The position numbers and the translations under genes are program-made. From assembly GCF_014892515.1 (NCBI RefSeq), contig NZ_JADBGR010000093.1, positions 18,108 through 82,107 on the forward strand: a stretch of 64,000 bases of DNA. Direction: 5' to 3'. The notes under the pieces are model-generated. The model was given only the letters and a program-made list of their open reading frames with translations. It was not told where the DNA came from and did not search any database. Each line of letters opens with the position of its first letter. The stretch's first letter is position 1. The stretch comes from Myceligenerans pegani. Lineage in GTDB: Bacteria; Actinomycetota; Actinomycetes; Actinomycetales; Cellulomonadaceae. Of the stretch, positions 2,339-60,089 are shown piece by piece.

Positions 2339-2371
2339 CTCCGGGTGCTCCGGGCAGGCCGGCGTTCGGAC

Positions 2372-2419
2372 GGCAAAGGGCGGGACAACCGGCGCCTGCC
2401 GGTTGTCCCGCCCCTTGCC
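2372..2419 (-). terminator. Strong hairpin terminator of acs
   Basis: A 22-bp inverted repeat with one mismatch (arms 2372-2393 and 2398-2419) and a GCCT loop sits 17 bases past the acs stop codon. Its position and strength suggest termination of acs and insulation of the glycosidase promoter. Confidence 0.75.
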
Positions 2420-2435
2420 GAACGACCCCTACACC

Positions 2436-14433: not shown

Positions 14434-14486
14434 AGCGGCGTCCGCCCGGGTCGGCCGCTTGCCGGGTGGTCGGCCGGAAGTCCGAT

Positions 14487-14510
14487 GATCGGCCGCTCGA
14501 GCCGCCGATC
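14487..14510. terminator. Hairpin between convergent paaG and HAD gene
   Basis: GATCGGC (14487-14493) pairs with GCCGATC (14504-14510) across a 10-base GC-rich loop in the 121-base gap between two convergent genes. It is a modest candidate for a shared terminator. Confidence 0.4.
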
Positions 14511-14554
14511 ACCCGACGTGTTGCCGACGACGTCAGCCCTGCCGGCGGGCACGG

Positions 14555-33362: not shown

Positions 33363-33608
33363 TCATCCGTCGTCAGGCCAGCGGTTCGCCAGGGCCAGCG
33401 CCTTGCGGGCCGCGTCCGTCGTGTCGCCGGTGGCCGCGGCCAGGCCCGTCGCGTAGCCGACCGCATAGGCGGTGAGGGGCGCGGCCGGTCGCGCGACGGC
33501 GTGTGCCGCGTCGCGGGCCAGGTCGAGGACCGTGTTCATGTCGATCGTGCCGGGCTCGAGCCCGAGCTCGGTCTCCAGGGCGGAGATCCAGGTCTGCAGG
33601 TCGGTCAA
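33363..33608 (-). CDS. DUF6457 small protein, mob-linked
   Basis: An 81-residue acidic protein whose conserved core is DLQTWISALETELGL and ALANRWPDDG. The start is an unusual TTG at 33608 that overlaps the mobA stop in a TTGA tetranucleotide and has GAAGGAG 5 bases upstream. A longer open frame runs further upstream but only as an Arg/Pro-rich shadow of mobA. The family is typically found beside molybdenum cofactor genes in actinobacteria; its biochemical role is unknown to me. It is the last gene of moeA-mobA-DUF6457. Confidence 0.85.
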   Translation of the reverse strand: MTDLQTWISALETELGLEPGTIDMNTVLDLARDAAHAVARPAAPLTAYAVGYATGLAAATGDTTDAARKALALANRWPDDG

Positions 33609-34522
33609 GGTCGCTCCTTCGGTGGGGGACCGGGGCGGACGCCGAGGTGCTCGGCATCGTCCCACGTGTCGACGTCTGCGGACAGATTGCCAGGGTCGGG
33701 GACTTCGAGCAGGCGGAGCCCGTTCAGGAGGCGCCGCACGGAGGCGCCGCGCCCCGACGGCGTGTCGTGTCCGACGGCGGTCAGGCGCTCCGCGAGCGCG
33801 TCGGTGCGATAGAGCCCCACGAGCCACTGCGCCCGCCCGCCGGCGACCAGGTGCGCCCCGTCCAGTCCGCTGTCACTCCGAACGGCGCGCCGCAGCTTCG
33901 GCACCGCCGCGCCAACCCGCGGCACATCGACGGCGAGCACCAGCACCCACGGCGATCCCGGCGCGGCGCGATCGCCGGCGGGAAGGGGCAGCGGGCGGTC
34001 CGGCTCCGTGTGGTCGGGGGGTTTCCGCGTGGTCCGGCGATCACTTGACCGACCCCGCGGAAAGCCCCCGACCACACGAGGGGCACTGGTCGGGGGCACC
34101 TCGGCCGCCGCCGGAGGCATCAGGGCTGCCAGGCCTGCGGCAATGCCGGCCACCGGGCCGCCGTACGGCGGATCTTCCCTGGTCAGCATGGTCCTGGGCG
34201 CGGCGGGATGGGCAGCGACGGCGTCCGCCAGGTCGTCAGGGCCGACGACGGCGATCCGGCGCGCATCCCCGGCCGCGTCGAGTGCGAGGTGGAGGAGCGG
34301 CACGCCGTCGTCGGACAGCAATCCCGGCTTGGCGACACCGCCCAGGCGGGACGCGCGGCCGCCGGCGAGGACGATCGCGTCGTACGGGCCGAGGGCGCTG
34401 CCCGACCCCGGGGCGGGACGGTCGGCCAGGGCGTCGGACTCGGCAATAGCCGCTGAGGTGGCGCCGTCCTTCGTGGCGGGCCGCTCAGCCGAGGCGTCGC
34501 GCGGGTCCTTGGTGTCGTTCAC
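33605..34522 (-). CDS. mobA: Molybdenum cofactor guanylyltransferase-like protein MobA
   Basis: A 305-residue NTP-transferase that attaches GMP to molybdopterin to make the guanine-dinucleotide cofactor used by the nitrate reductase downstream. The signature is VLAGGRASRLGGVAKPGLL (about 51-69), followed by GGPVAGIAAGL and the metal-binding Asp in LVLAVDVP. The N-terminal 45 residues are low complexity. Between GGPVAGIAAGL and LAVDVP an Arg/Pro-rich insert of about 45 residues is encoded by a 72-bp palindromic element, which is foreign to the family. It overlaps moeA by 4 bases on one side and DUF6457 on the other. The core motifs are intact, so it is probably functional despite the insert. 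Confidence 0.88.
   Translation of the reverse strand: MNDTKDPRDASAERPATKDGATSAAIAESDALADRPAPGSGSALGPYDAIVLAGGRASRLGGVAKPGLLSDDGVPLLHLALDAAGDARRIAVVGPDDLADAVAAHPAAPRTMLTREDPPYGGPVAGIAAGLAALMPPAAAEVPPTSAPRVVGGFPRGRSSDRRTTRKPPDHTEPDRPLPLPAGDRAAPGSPWVLVLAVDVPRVGAAVPKLRRAVRSDSGLDGAHLVAGGRAQWLVGLYRTDALAERLTAVGHDTPSGRGASVRRLLNGLRLLEVPDPGNLSADVDTWDDAEHLGVRPGPPPKERP
34007..34078. repeat. Palindromic element inside mobA
   Basis: Two 23-bp arms (34007-34029 and 34056-34078) are inverted copies with a single mismatch, separated by 26 bases. The whole 72 bp is a multiple of three and is read through in mobA as VVGGFPRGRSSDRRTTRKPPDH. Its size and form resemble a mobile palindromic element rather than normal coding drift. 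Confidence 0.85.
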
Positions 34523-36054
34523 AGCGGGATCACCGGCACCAGATCACCCGGTTCGACCTTCTCGACGTCGGCGGGAACCACGGCCAGCGCATCGGCCGCC
34601 GTCAGCGCCGACAGGTGATGCCCGTCGCCGGTGGGCTCGACCCCGTCGGCCAGTATCCGTACCGGCACGACCTGCTCCCGGCCGCGCGGGCTGGTCCACC
34701 CGGCGGCGGCCGGCCGGGACTCCGGCGCGCGGCCGGGGCCCGAGAGGCCGCGCAGCCGCTCGATCGCCGGCCGCACGAACATGACGAACGAGACGTAGGC
34801 GGCCACCGGCGTGCCCGGCACGGCGATCCACGGGACGCCCCGCCAGCGCGCGAGCGCCTGCGGGCGCCCGGGCTTCATCCCCACGGCGGCGACGTCGACG
34901 CCGGACACGGCGCCGGGCCCACCACCGGGCATCCGGTCACCCCCGGCCGAGAGGACGGCGCGCACGACGTCGGCCGCGCCCGCCGACACGCCCCCGGCGG
35001 TCACGATCAGGTCGACGCGCGGGTCCGCCTCCGCGGCGGGCCGTCCCGGTCCTGCGACAGCCCCGCCCGGTCCCCCGACGACCTCGCCCGGTCGCGCGGC
35101 CACCTCCTCCCGTCGCCCGGCCACGTCCCCCGGTTCCCCGGCCACCCCACCCGCTCCCGCGTGCGCCTCACCCGGGCCGAACGTCGCGTCGTCCAGGGCC
35201 GCACGGAGCGCGTCCGGTTCGTCGGGGACCGGGCCCAGGCGAACGACGTCCGCCCCCGCTGCTCGCGCCGCCGCCGCGAGCATGAGCGAGTTCGAGTCGG
35301 TGATCTGCCCCGGCCGGACCGGCGATCCCGACGGCACCAGCTCCGAGCCGGTCGCGATGATCGCCACCCGGGGCCGCCGTCGGACACGAACCCGCGAGAC
35401 GCCGGTGGCGGCGAGCGCCGCCACCAGCGGCGCCGTCAACTCCTGACCGGCGCGCGCGAGCACGGCGCCCGCCGCGGTGTCGGTGCCCTGCCGGCGGATG
35501 TGGTCGCGGGGCTGGCGCCCCAGCGTCACGCTGCCGGCCGCCCCGACGCCGGATTCCGAGGCCGGGTCGAATCGGCCTGTGGACGTCCGCTCCACGGGGA
35601 CGACGGCGTCCGCGCCGGGCGGTAGCGGCGCACCGGTCATGATCCGGGCCGCGGTGCCCGGCGCCAGCTCGCGGGGCTCGTTCGGCGCGGCCGGGATGTC
35701 GGCCACGACCCGGAGCACCACCGGTTCGGAGCCGGCGGGCAGATCACCGCTGCGCACGGCGTACCCGTCCATGGCGGAGTGATCGAAGGCCGGTACGGCA
35801 TGCGCGGCGCTCACATCCTCGGCCAGCACTGCCGGGTCGGTCCCCTGCGGGGCGGTCGGCCCGATGTCGAGAAGTCGGTCCCCCGAGGGACCCACCACAC
35901 GGACATCGGGCCGACCACTCGACGACGGACCGACCGCACCGCCGTCGACGATCTCCGCCGGCGTCGTCTCGCGCGGGGGCAGCGGCGAGACCATCGCGAG
36001 CACACGCTCGAGGTGCTCGGCAACGGTACGGCTCGTCGGTTCCACGACGTCCAC
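34519..36054 (-). CDS. moeA: Molybdopterin molybdotransferase MoeA
   Basis: MoeA inserts molybdate into adenylylated molybdopterin. I place the start at GTG 36054 (511 residues), where family similarity begins (RTVAEHLERVLAMVSPLPP); the frame is open to GTG 36138. Conserved blocks are VPAFDHSAMDGYAVR, MTGAPLPPGADAVVPVE, ATGSELVPSG with GQITDSNSLMLAAA, and the molybdate-site VTAGGVSAGAADVV. Within the MogA-like domain, before DPRVDLIVTAGGVS, there is a Gly/Pro/Val-rich insert built of seven-residue repeats. The C-terminal domain IV ends in EKVEPGDLVPVI. It leads the moeA-mobA-DUF6457 operon, divergent from narK. Confidence 0.93.
   Translation of the reverse strand: MDVVEPTSRTVAEHLERVLAMVSPLPPRETTPAEIVDGGAVGPSSSGRPDVRVVGPSGDRLLDIGPTAPQGTDPAVLAEDVSAAHAVPAFDHSAMDGYAVRSGDLPAGSEPVVLRVVADIPAAPNEPRELAPGTAARIMTGAPLPPGADAVVPVERTSTGRFDPASESGVGAAGSVTLGRQPRDHIRRQGTDTAAGAVLARAGQELTAPLVAALAATGVSRVRVRRRPRVAIIATGSELVPSGSPVRPGQITDSNSLMLAAAARAAGADVVRLGPVPDEPDALRAALDDATFGPGEAHAGAGGVAGEPGDVAGRREEVAARPGEVVGGPGGAVAGPGRPAAEADPRVDLIVTAGGVSAGAADVVRAVLSAGGDRMPGGGPGAVSGVDVAAVGMKPGRPQALARWRGVPWIAVPGTPVAAYVSFVMFVRPAIERLRGLSGPGRAPESRPAAAGWTSPRGREQVVPVRILADGVEPTGDGHHLSALTAADALAVVPADVEKVEPGDLVPVIPL
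35059..35163 (-). repeat. 21-bp tandem repeats encoding a heptapeptide array in moeA
   Basis: About five degenerate 21-bp units (boundaries at 35080, 35101, 35122, 35143) encode seven-residue units of the form PGxVxGx. They form the MoeA-domain insert and keep frame. Confidence 0.7.
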
Positions 36055-36177
36055 GCTAGTCGTCCGCTGTTCGCGACGGGTTGCACCCGCCTCACCGCCG
36101 GCGGGCGCGACCTGTGAGCCGGGCGGGTGCCGGCTCACGTGGTCTCACATCGCCCCCTAGACGCCTGTGCGTTCTTT

Positions 36178-57456: not shown

Positions 57457-59751
57457 ATGCTCACACTCGGCTCCACCAGCATCACCGTTGTCGCGGTGAT
57501 CGCCCTCATCGCCCTGGGCGCGCTCGTCTGCGCCTTCATCCTGCGCCGGCAGGTGCTCGCCGCTCCTGAAGGCACCCCGAAGATGCAGGACATCGCACAA
57601 GGGGTGCAGGAGGGCGCCTCGGCCTACCTCAATCGTCAGTTCCGCACGCTCGCCCTGTTCGCGGTGGTCGTGTTCGCGCTGCTGTTCCTGCTCCCCGGGG
57701 AGAGCGGGGTGCGCGTCGGCAGGTCCGTCGCGTTCCTCTTCGGCGCCGGGTTCTCCGCCGCGATCGGTTACCTCGGCATGTGGCTGGCGGTGCGGGCGAA
57801 CGTGCGCGTCGCCTCCGCCGCGACCCGTCCCGGTGGCCGCGCCGAGGGCGCCCGCATCGCGTTCCGCACGGGCGGCGTCGTCGGCATGTCGGTGGTCGGC
57901 CTCGGCCTCCTCGGAGCCGCGCTCGTCGTCATCGTCTACCGCGAGCAGGCGCCCGGCGTCCTCGAGGGCTTCGGCTTCGGCGCGGCGCTCCTCGCGATGT
58001 TCATGCGGGTCGGTGGCGGAATCTTCACCAAGGCGGCGGACGTCGGTGCCGACCTGGTCGGAAAGGTCGAGCAGGGCATTCCCGAGGACGATCCGCGCAA
58101 CGCGGCCACGATCGCGGACAACGTGGGCGACAACGTCGGCGACTGCGCCGGGATGGCGGCCGACCTCTTCGAGTCGTACGCCGTGACGCTCGTGGCCGCC
58201 CTGATCCTGGGCAAGGCCGCGATGGGCGAGCAGGGCCTCGTGTTCCCGCTGATCGTCACCGCGATCGGCGCGTTCGTCGCCCTCCTGGGCGTGTTCATCA
58301 CTCGCGTGCGCGGTTCGGAGAGCGGGCTGACGGCCATCAACCGGGGCTTCTATGTCTCCGCGCTCGTGGGCGCGGTGCTGGCGGGCATCGCGGCGTTCGT
58401 CTACCTGCCGGGCTCCTTCGCGCAGCTGAACGGCACCGCCGACCTCGGTGATGTCAGCGGGATCGACCCGCGGGTCGTCGCCTCCGTGGCCGTGCTGGTC
58501 GGCGTGGTCCTGGCGGGCGTGATCCTGTGGCTCACCGGCTACTTCACGGACACGAACAAGAAGCCGACCGCGCATGTGGCGGCCACCTCGCGAACCGGCG
58601 CGGCGACCGTGGTGCTCGCGGGCATCGGCGTGGGCTTCGAGTCGGCCGTCTTCACGGCCGGCACGATCGCCGCCGCGATCTGCGCCGTGTTCCTGCTGGC
58701 CGGCGGGTCGGTGTGGCTCGCGCTGTTCCTCGTGGCGCTGGCGGGCTGCGGCCTGCTCACCACGGTGGGCGTCATCGTCGCGATGGACACCTTCGGTCCG
58801 GTCAGTGACAACGCGCAGGGCATCGCCGAGATGTCCGGCGACGTGGACGAGAACGGCGCGCAGATCCTCACCGACCTGGACGCCGTCGGGAACACCACCA
58901 AGGCCATCACGAAGGGCATCGCCATCGCGACGGCCGTGCTGGCGGCGACGGCGCTGTTCGGCTCGTACGCGGACGCGGTGACGCATGCGCTGGGGGACGT
59001 GGAGGAGCAGGGCCGGGGCCTGGTCGCGGCCATGCTCAGCTACGAAATCGTCAGCCCGGTCACCCTCGTGGGCGTGATCCTCGGCGGTGCGACCGTTTTC
59101 CTGTTCTCGGGCCTCGCGATCGACGCGGTGACGCGGGCGGCCGGGGCGATCGTGTTCGAGGTGCGGCGCCAGTTCCGCGAGCACCCGGGCATCATGACGT
59201 ACGACGAGCGTCCGGAGTACGGTCGCGTGGTCGACATCTGCACCAAGGACTCGCTGCGTGAACTCGCCACGCCGGGCCTCCTCGCGGCCTTCGCCCCGAT
59301 CGCGGTGGGCTTCGGCCTCGGCGTCGGCCCGCTGGCCGGCTTCCTCGGTGGTGCCATCGGCGCGGGCGTGCTCATGGCGATCTTCCTGGCGAACTCGGGC
59401 GGCGCCTGGGACAACGCGAAGAAGATCGTGGAGGACGGCAACTACGGCGGGAAGGGCTCCGAGGCGCACGAGGCGACCATCATCGGCGACACCGTGGGCG
59501 ACCCGTTCAAGGACACGGCCGGCCCGGCGATCAACCCGCTCATCAAGGTGATGAACCTGGTGGCGCTGCTGATCGCGCCCGCGGTCGTGGCGATGTCGAT
59601 CCCGGCCGACGCGAACCACGCCCTGCGCATCGGCATCGCGCTGGTCGCGGCGGCCATCGCGCTCGGCGCGGTCGCCTGGACGAAGATCCGCGCGAACCGC
59701 GAGAACGGCGCGTCGGAGGAGAGCGAGGAGAAGGCGCCGGCGGTGGTCTGA
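57457..59751 (+). CDS. hppA: K+-independent proton-translocating pyrophosphatase
   Basis: An integral membrane enzyme of 764 residues that couples pyrophosphate hydrolysis to proton export or import. GAGGAGG precedes ATG 57457. About 16 membrane helices are visible. The substrate site includes GGGIFTKAADVGADLVGKVE, DDPRNAATIADNVGDNVGDCAGM and the C-terminal GGAWDNAKKIVE with GDTVGDPFKDTAGPA. The determinant GNTTKAITKG has Lys and Thr where K+-dependent enzymes have Ala and Gly, so this is the K+-independent type. It stands alone and ends before two hairpins. Confidence 0.97.
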   Translation: MLTLGSTSITVVAVIALIALGALVCAFILRRQVLAAPEGTPKMQDIAQGVQEGASAYLNRQFRTLALFAVVVFALLFLLPGESGVRVGRSVAFLFGAGFSAAIGYLGMWLAVRANVRVASAATRPGGRAEGARIAFRTGGVVGMSVVGLGLLGAALVVIVYREQAPGVLEGFGFGAALLAMFMRVGGGIFTKAADVGADLVGKVEQGIPEDDPRNAATIADNVGDNVGDCAGMAADLFESYAVTLVAALILGKAAMGEQGLVFPLIVTAIGAFVALLGVFITRVRGSESGLTAINRGFYVSALVGAVLAGIAAFVYLPGSFAQLNGTADLGDVSGIDPRVVASVAVLVGVVLAGVILWLTGYFTDTNKKPTAHVAATSRTGAATVVLAGIGVGFESAVFTAGTIAAAICAVFLLAGGSVWLALFLVALAGCGLLTTVGVIVAMDTFGPVSDNAQGIAEMSGDVDENGAQILTDLDAVGNTTKAITKGIAIATAVLAATALFGSYADAVTHALGDVEEQGRGLVAAMLSYEIVSPVTLVGVILGGATVFLFSGLAIDAVTRAAGAIVFEVRRQFREHPGIMTYDERPEYGRVVDICTKDSLRELATPGLLAAFAPIAVGFGLGVGPLAGFLGGAIGAGVLMAIFLANSGGAWDNAKKIVEDGNYGGKGSEAHEATIIGDTVGDPFKDTAGPAINPLIKVMNLVALLIAPAVVAMSIPADANHALRIGIALVAAAIALGAVAWTKIRANRENGASEESEEKAPAVV

Positions 59752-59772: not shown

Positions 59773-59862
59773 CGGTCATCCGATGACCGCCCGGAACCTT
59801 GATCGGTCCTTCGGTGGGTGATCAGCAGTTCGATCTGCCGATCACCCACCGAAGGACCGATC
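59773..59862 (+). terminator. Two hairpins after hppA, one with 23-bp perfect arms
   Basis: CGGTCAT/ATGACCG (59773-59789) is followed by a perfect 23-bp inverted repeat (59801-59823 and 59840-59862) whose 16-base loop can pair further (GCAG/CTGC). It is an unusually long terminator-like structure, and the rest of the 338-base gap to 60089 shows no gene. Confidence 0.75.
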
Positions 59863-60089
59863 GCTGTCCGCGGGCTTTCGGCTCGGGGCTCGGCCTCGTA
59901 CTGAGCCTCGTGCAGTAAGGGATCAAATCCATTTACTCGGCCCTCAAAGGTCTGTCCGGCCCTGCTGAACCGAATCCAGCAGCGGCGCCGTCGGGCCCGG
60001 CCGTCGGGCGACGGCGGGGAGAGCCGGCGCAGGTTGCGGTGGTTCGGTTTCCGGTGGGGGGTGCGGGCGGCGTACGGGAAGATGGCGGT

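What the first reader, a model, noticed from the sequence alone, without database searches (positions are those of the whole stretch)
34007..34078. Palindromic element inserted in frame within mobA
Two 23-bp arms with one mismatch lie inside the coding region at a loop before the metal-binding LAVDVP. The 72-bp unit keeps frame and adds an Arg/Pro-rich peptide. This recalls protein-coding palindromic elements such as those in Rickettsia, which are not usual in actinobacteria.
Basis: partly seen in the sequence, partly recalled or inferred. Interest (0 to 1): 0.55.

Follow-up and report, generated by a model that had tools for sequence, protein, structure and literature searches.

The report
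Mobile DNA hairpins inside enzyme genes
A soil actinobacterium carries dozens of copies of a short DNA hairpin, and at least six lie in frame inside ordinary enzyme genes, adding about 25 amino acids each, much like the protein-coding palindromes known from Rickettsia.

Summary
The palindrome is real, at exactly 34007-34078 (two 23-bp arms, one mismatch), and is the outer part of a ~72-bp hairpin. It belongs to a dispersed repeat family. 46 places in the genome match the family model (35 of them at 40 bits or more), in three related types. The related species Myceligenerans indicum has 24 copies of the same type, at least one without a mismatch. Six copies of this genome lie in frame inside conserved genes: mobA, the adjacent moeA, menE, tilS, an Ada-AlkA fusion and an alpha/beta-hydrolase, at variable linkers. 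menE shares its copy with a sister species; M. indicum tilS carries one too; and another genus has its own element type in the same ada-alkA linker. The other 40 lie between genes by my gene calls. No Y1 (RAYT-type) transposase was found in four genomes of the genus, and no half-arm pair looks like insertion-sequence ends, so how it moves is unknown. Best reading: a non-autonomous, REP/MITE-like selfish palindrome, tolerated in genes when it lands in frame in a flexible linker. It works like a Rickettsia palindromic element without being one.

The parts
34004..34081 (.). Palindromic element, type A, in frame in mobA (residues 148-173); imperfect 34-bp stem, loop near 34041-34044
   Evidence: CM R1 89.2 bits on + and 71.2 on - (the model includes this copy); fold z about -7; blastn relatives at six other places of the genome
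34007..34029 (+). Left 23-bp arm as reported
   Evidence: arms 34007-34029 / 34056-34078, one mismatch
34056..34078 (+). Right 23-bp arm as reported
33605..34522 (-). mobA-like gene (MobA-like NTP transferase), 305 aa, host of the element
35846..35924 (.). Second palindromic element, type B, in frame in moeA (residues 73-97), absent from moeA of the three congeners
   Evidence: 43.3 bits; RNA z -5.9; no match in the congeners' moeA loci
34519..36138 (-). moeA gene (MoeA_N, MoCF_biosynth, MoeA_C), upstream of and overlapping mobA by 4 bases
59793..59870 (.). Intergenic palindromic element, type C, downstream of the ORF 57457-59751 (pyrophosphatase-like, name recalled, not searched)
   Evidence: 47.9 bits; RNA z -11
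14460..14537. Weaker type B-like element, not in frame in a gene by the test
   Evidence: (26.7 bits); not counted in the 46

Best explanation
The 72-bp palindrome is one copy of a dispersed, non-autonomous palindromic repeat family of the genus Myceligenerans. Each arm of a typical copy holds two units, about 19 bp apart, built around TGGTCGG, so one strand folds into a long hairpin. Copies spread, by a route not identified, mostly into spaces between genes. Now and then one lands inside a gene. Where it falls in a variable linker, in a frame without a stop, the gene survives with a run of about 25 extra residues, and the copy is then inherited as part of the protein. This is seen at six places of this genome (mobA, moeA, menE, tilS, ada-alkA, an alpha/beta-hydrolase). 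Shown: the family, its copies, the in-frame positions, the absence from relatives as listed. Inferred: insertion as the direction of change, mobility, survival of enzyme function, neutrality of the peptide.
For: Copies. In-frame genic copies against relatives: mobA, tilS, hydrolase, ada-alkA, moeA and menE, checked at DNA level with the family model; domains by Pfam. Paired change: in 23 M. indicum copies 95.3% of cells pair and 59 cells are changed on both sides against 23.8 in shuffles (0 of 500 as high), slid controls at most 14. Inheritance: menE copy shared with the sister genome G002. Recurrence: G005, another genus, has its own element type in frame in the same ada-alkA linker. Tolerable frame: the frame used in mobA and the hydrolase has a stop in 0 of 7 type A copies of this genome but in 19 of 23 of M. 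indicum. Intergenic preference: 40 of 46.
Against: No transposase or other mover was found, no target-site duplication was evident by eye, and no empty site could be read at base level because the linkers have diverged. The ada-alkA copy is read in a frame that has a stop in 4 of 7 own and 22 of 23 M. indicum type A copies, so that copy must have lost it or lacked it. Transcription and translation were not tested. Gene calls are mine (a codon model trained on the window). The mobA linker has 17-24 more extra residues than the element explains. For mobA and moeA only three congeners each were compared.
Confidence: 0.85

Rival explanations
1. The hairpins are bidirectional transcription terminators or mRNA-end stabilisers that have multiplied, and the genic ones are strays.
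For: Few intergenic copies lie between divergent genes: own types B/C 12 convergent, 21 tandem, 4 divergent of 37; M. indicum 11 convergent, 8 tandem, 2 divergent and 2 at contig ends of 23. The genome's own background of such intervals was not measured.
Against: Copies are alike in sequence, with 16 of 34 pairs that never vary, which a terminator does not need; two strong hairpins lie within the coding parts of two overlapping genes, where a terminator should be polar. T-runs were not tested.
Confidence: 0.15
2. The genic elements were kept because they do something useful, for example a hairpin that regulates moeA-mobA, or a peptide with a binding function.
For: Two elements in two neighbouring genes of one pathway; menE copy kept in two species with third-position change (0.24) above first and second (0.12, 0.15); tilS carries one in two species; ada-alkA carries unlike elements at the same linker in two genera.
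Against: Six unrelated enzymes; peptides read in more than one frame; amino-acid change in the menE element (0.26 of 34 codons) is no lower than in the rest of the protein (0.18 of 342); most relatives compared lack an insert.
Confidence: 0.08
3. The palindrome arose in place, by template switching or slippage in a GC-rich linker, and the likeness to other copies comes from a preferred motif.
For: Some copies have further tandem units beside the hairpin and arms that change in step, as copying within a hairpin would give; linkers of this genus hold low-complexity expansions.
Against: The mobA copy aligns with the six other places over 66-83 bp at 77-88% identity on the better strand, with the same loop and unit order, which points to common descent of the whole element.
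Confidence: 0.05
4. It is a MITE moved by an insertion sequence of the same genome whose ends resemble the arms.
For: Size, palindromy and copy number fit a MITE.
Against: A 29-bp half-arm pattern with up to 3 mismatches gives 42 hits in M. indicum and 4 in the own genome; compared by hand with the copy lists, all lie in or directly beside known hairpins, none as a pair at insertion-sequence distance. An IS with more diverged ends is not excluded.
Confidence: 0.2

Closest known systems
Rickettsia palindromic elements (RPE), and the Wolbachia protein-coding palindromic repeats
   Same: Palindromic repeats in frame in unrelated, conserved genes; also present between genes (passages of PMC10969869 and PMC2229807; the Wolbachia case seen only as a reference title).
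   Different: RPEs are given there as 105-146 bp or ~150 bp, in ten families; this one is about 72 bp with two units per arm, GC-rich, in an actinobacterium. No sequence comparison with RPEs was run. Nearly half the RPEs are genic by PMC10969869; here 6 of 46.
Intragenic GTAG and CGTC REPs (Di Nocera et al. 2013, PMC3733652)
   Same: Short palindromes, mainly downstream of coding regions, some inside ORFs, argued to be neutral where they lie in flexible linkers or loops; CGTC REPs too lack a dedicated transposase (abstract and passages).
   Different: Those have 5-13 bp stems and an unpaired GTAG or CGTC tag at one end; this has a 34-bp stem, and I saw no such tag. The word 'actinobacteria' does not occur in that text.
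QMITE2 of Coxiella burnetii (PMC5896051)
   Same: A MITE sometimes in frame within ORFs (passages).
   Different: Different phylum; the in-frame cases shown are hypothetical ORFs or a gene's 3' end. Sequences not compared.

Membership tests
Protein-coding palindromic elements (general kind, of which RPE is the type) | Palindromic repeat in several copies | tested here: met
   46 places in the own genome, the weakest of which may be unrelated hairpins; fold z -7
Protein-coding palindromic elements (general kind, of which RPE is the type) | In frame inside several unrelated genes, absent from orthologues | tested here: met
   Six genes. Exceptions among orthologues: menE of G002, tilS of G001, and ada-alkA of G005 carry an element too
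Protein-coding palindromic elements (general kind, of which RPE is the type) | Element-encoded peptides alike between genes | tested here: met
   mobA, hydrolase and ada-alkA inserts share V.G.P.GR.....TTR..PD (its fourth row is an intergenic copy); tilS uses another frame, and moeA and menE carry type B, so only three of six genes show it
Protein-coding palindromic elements (general kind, of which RPE is the type) | Host gene still makes a working protein | not testable with these tools
   Open frames and domain matches only
RPE of Rickettsia, as a family | Length 105-150 bp | tested here: not met
   About 72 bp; RPE length from PMC2229807 and PMC10969869
RPE of Rickettsia, as a family | Sequence likeness to a described RPE | not tested
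   No RPE sequence was fetched
REP with RAYT (GTAG superfamily) | Y1 tyrosine transposase in the genome | tested here: not met
   PF01797: 0 of 4 genomes of the genus; control found it in 5 of 14 known genomes. Drafts, so a gap cannot be excluded
REP with RAYT (GTAG superfamily) | Unpaired GTAG or CGTC tag, stem 5-13 bp | tested here: not met
   34-bp stem in 23 copies; tag looked for by eye only
MITE of an insertion sequence | Terminal repeats match those of a transposase-bearing element | tested here: inconclusive
   No half-arm pair at IS distance within 3 mismatches
MITE of an insertion sequence | Target-site duplication | tested here: inconclusive
   None evident by eye in the flanks of 24 M. 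indicum copies
Known structured RNA | Rfam match over the gathering score | tested here: not met
   In 33500-34600 only two microRNA-model hits, 28.2 and 22.5 bits against cut-offs of 90 and 78

The most novel reading that the evidence does not exclude
A family-wide class of palindromes with two or more units per arm lives in these actinobacteria without any known transposase. Each genus has its own sequence on the same plan. The arms are kept matched by copying one arm from the other through a hairpin or cruciform, units are gained the same way, and the elements repeatedly become coding sequence in conserved enzymes, even at the same linker in different genera.
Probability: 0.4. Interest if true: 0.65.

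Novelty: new variant of a known kind. Interest (0 to 1): 0.55.

Why it matters
In-frame palindromic elements have been described mainly from Rickettsia and Wolbachia, both intracellular bacteria with small genomes (recalled), and in scattered form as intragenic REPs. A high-GC actinobacterium with six such inserts in enzymes of cofactor, tRNA and repair pathways would show that the process does not depend on an intracellular life style. The matched arms and the missing transposase make the question of how short palindromes spread directly testable in this genus.

Tried and rejected
Structure prediction of the mobA protein alone gave no usable model (mean pLDDT 34.3) and a PDB sequence search found no relative, so the position of the insert in the fold was not established.

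Rfam gave nothing above threshold. The element is not in viral contigs by an exact core pattern, nor in the phage or plasmid collections by blastn at E 1e-5.

An early idea that genic copies had lost a TGA under selection is not supported for mobA and the hydrolase: their frame is open in 7 of 7 own type A copies, genic or not. It is not excluded for ada-alkA, whose frame has a stop in 4 of 7 own copies.

Three copies first looked genic: upstream of an isochorismate-synthase-like ORF (L003), of a release-factor-like ORF (L096) and of a kinase-like ORF (L067). They lie before the likely start and are counted as intergenic (gene names read off the sequence, not searched). A short open frame at L076 was likewise dropped.

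I first took ada-alkA of G005 for an orthologue without an element. A check of 27 orthologue loci with the family model showed one there (36.8 bits), and bore it out; the text is mended and the odds of the novel case raised from 0.35 to 0.4 and the interest from 0.52 to 0.55 for this reason.

The excess of genic copies in type A (4 of 7) over types B/C (2 of 39; Fisher p 0.003) and over M. indicum type A (1 of 24; p 0.005) is reported but not leaned on: the family search began from a genic copy. A binomial test used an assumed coding fraction of 0.88 and is not used.

Counts and drops: one of the 24 M. indicum copies (C115, listed with 79 positions) was left out of the stop count and of alignment A3, which hold 23. 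The 46 own places are 44, merged by hand from 69 matches, plus two window copies; 33 of the 44 score 40 bits or more.

Full report
Observation. The window holds an inverted repeat at exactly 34007-34078, arms of 23 bp with one mismatch and 26 bases between. Nine of ten first-order resamples of the window contain no pair of that quality; one has 2 hits. The middle pairs too, so the element is a hairpin of about 72 bp; its DNA fold is 7 standard deviations below shuffles, and so is the RNA of the coding strand. It lies in an open frame of 305 codons on the minus strand, a MobA-like NTP transferase, and encodes residues 148-173.

Other copies in this genome. blastn with 106 bases finds six other places with hairpins of the same type in the 5.87-Mb genome: C45, C97 (two), C6, C88 and C91. 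A further short hit in C94 is a tandem stretch, not a hairpin. A covariance model of eight copies gives 69 matches at E <= 0.001, 44 distinct places. A full scan of the window adds copies at 35846-35924 and 59793-59870 that the capped genome search had not listed, and weaker ones such as 14460-14537. That makes 46 places, 35 of them at 40 bits or more. Three types can be told apart by eye: A, the reported one; B, with TGTCG units and a CCTCGGG-like loop; C, with a GTGAGTGATCGGCAGATC-like inner arm. All share an outer and an inner GTGRTCGG-like motif in each arm. The labels A, B, C are mine.

Which organism. A core pattern hits only Myceligenerans indicum I2 in the genome collection (14 stretches; that tool may leave out the window's own genome and very near ones). 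Contig lengths identify G001 with it (33352, 25005, 26819). The window's genome is in the same genus by the tool's kinship. M. indicum has 24 copies (48 matches on both strands), all with the type A loop; the copy at C89:26685 folds without a mismatch at -76.7 kcal/mol.

Anatomy. In 23 of the 24 M. indicum copies the 34 pairs of the stem form in 95.3% of cells. Sixteen pairs never vary, most of them in the TGGTCGG motifs, twice per arm. The spacer between them varies, but with both sides changed together: 12 pairs, 59 cells, against 23.8 cells in shuffles, 0 of 500 as high; slid controls give at most 14 cells. So the arms change in step. On the eight mixed copies of A1 the same test is weaker: 14 cells against 7.9, 2 of 500 shuffles as high. 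Some copies carry a further unit beside the hairpin.

Genes that carry a copy. Six genes of the own genome carry an element in frame: mobA; moeA, its overlapping upstream neighbour (two elements of different types 1.8 kb apart); menE; tilS; an Ada-AlkA fusion; an alpha/beta-hydrolase. Orthologues were aligned and 27 orthologue loci scanned with the family model. mobA and moeA: absent in G001, G002, G003. Hydrolase: absent in G001, G002, G003, G005, G009. tilS: absent in G002, G003, G005, G009; present in G001 at the same place and frame as a near-perfect copy, so either a second insertion in a tolerant linker or an old one lost in G002. menE: present in G002 (52 bits), absent in G001, G003, G005, G009. 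ada-alkA: absent in G001, G002, G003, G009; but G005, another genus, has an in-frame palindrome in the same linker (36.8 bits; RNA fold z -3.8, 0 of 200 shuffles as stable). It matches another hairpin of G005 (L023) at 62 of 74 aligned columns (score 86; best of 200 shuffles 23) and the mobA copy only weakly (34 against 25). So two genera have each put their own element into this linker.

Constraint. Between own and G002 the menE element differs at codon positions 1, 2, 3 by 0.12, 0.15, 0.24 over 34 codons, amino acids 0.26; the rest of the protein 0.10, 0.11, 0.29 and 0.18. The insert evolves as weakly constrained coding sequence. By Pfam borders the inserts in ada-alkA and tilS fall between domain matches, and that in mobA interrupts the single domain.

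Reading frame. mobA and the hydrolase read the element in the same frame and orientation, ada-alkA in the equivalent frame of the other orientation, giving V.G.P.GR.....TTR..PD; tilS uses another frame. The mobA/hydrolase frame has a stop in 0 of 7 own type A copies, genic or not, and in 19 of 23 M. indicum copies; the ada-alkA frame has a stop in 4 of 7 and 22 of 23. So the local version of the element was fit to be read through in one orientation; I do not claim that genes selected against the stop in general.

Where the other copies lie. By a codon-model gene caller (134 of 139 training chunks placed in the right frame), 40 of 46 own copies are intergenic: 13 convergent, 23 tandem and 4 divergent. 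In M. indicum 1 of 24 is genic. The background of such intervals was not measured.

What moves it. PF01797, the Y1 transposase that goes with GTAG REPs, was not found in the four genomes of the genus (0 of 4; control found it in 5 of 14). A half-arm pattern gives 42 hits in M. indicum and 4 in the own genome, all in or beside known hairpins, and none in the backwards control. Phages, plasmids and viral contigs gave no match. The route of spread is open.

Wider spread. Of 39 genomes searched with the model, 10 had matches: all four of the genus and six of other genera of the family. The copies printed from G004, G005, G009 and G012 have other sequences on the same two-motif plan. Since the model rewards any long GC hairpin, common descent of these types is a lead, not proof.

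Literature. Passages read by term search: PMC10969869 and PMC2229807 on RPEs, PMC3733652 on GTAG/CGTC REPs and their genic copies, PMC5896051, PMC12306157 (Actinomycetota once, in a table; none of Cellulomon-, Promicromonospor- or Myceligenerans). Listings only: Myceligenerans with palindrom (0 papers); Promicromonospora with palindromic and repeat (7); combinations with REP, MITE, in-frame, Rickettsia, Wolbachia and actinobacteria (of which 46 and 69 showed 20 of 2,702 and 15 of 100). By title and start of abstract none reports in-frame palindromic elements in Actinomycetota. The founding Rickettsia paper is not held. Absence here is absence from these searches only.

Verdict. The finding stands and grows: a dispersed palindromic repeat that becomes part of proteins, in a phylum where these searches showed no report of it. 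It works like an RPE. It fails the tests for a RAYT-type REP and differs from RPEs in size and host, so I file it as a new variant of a known kind. The peptide most likely has no function.

Noticed in passing
window 35846-35924: A second element, of another type, sits in frame near the N-terminus of moeA, next to mobA.
   Followed up: yes
L141:1693-1768 (G005): Another genus carries its own palindrome type in frame in the same ada-alkA linker.
   Followed up: yes
L173:1086-1164 (G002) and L061 (own): The same in-frame type B element is inherited in menE of two species, with weak coding constraint.
   Followed up: yes
L108 (G001 C96:18135): M. indicum tilS carries a near-perfect copy beside a repeated EPGADD stretch, at the same linker and frame as the degenerate copy in the own tilS.
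   Followed up: partly
L116, L117, L118, L120 (M. indicum): Hairpins with extra tandem units beside them; may show how arms grow.
   Followed up: no
L023, L033, L026, L034, L027, L024: Other genera of the family have near-perfect hairpins with the same two-motif plan but other sequences.
   Followed up: partly
L142:2792-2851 (G009): A hairpin matching the family model (36.6 bits) lies downstream of ada-alkA in G009.
   Followed up: no
window 2371-2420: A strong 23-bp inverted repeat with a 4-base loop without the family motifs, perhaps an ordinary terminator.
   Followed up: no
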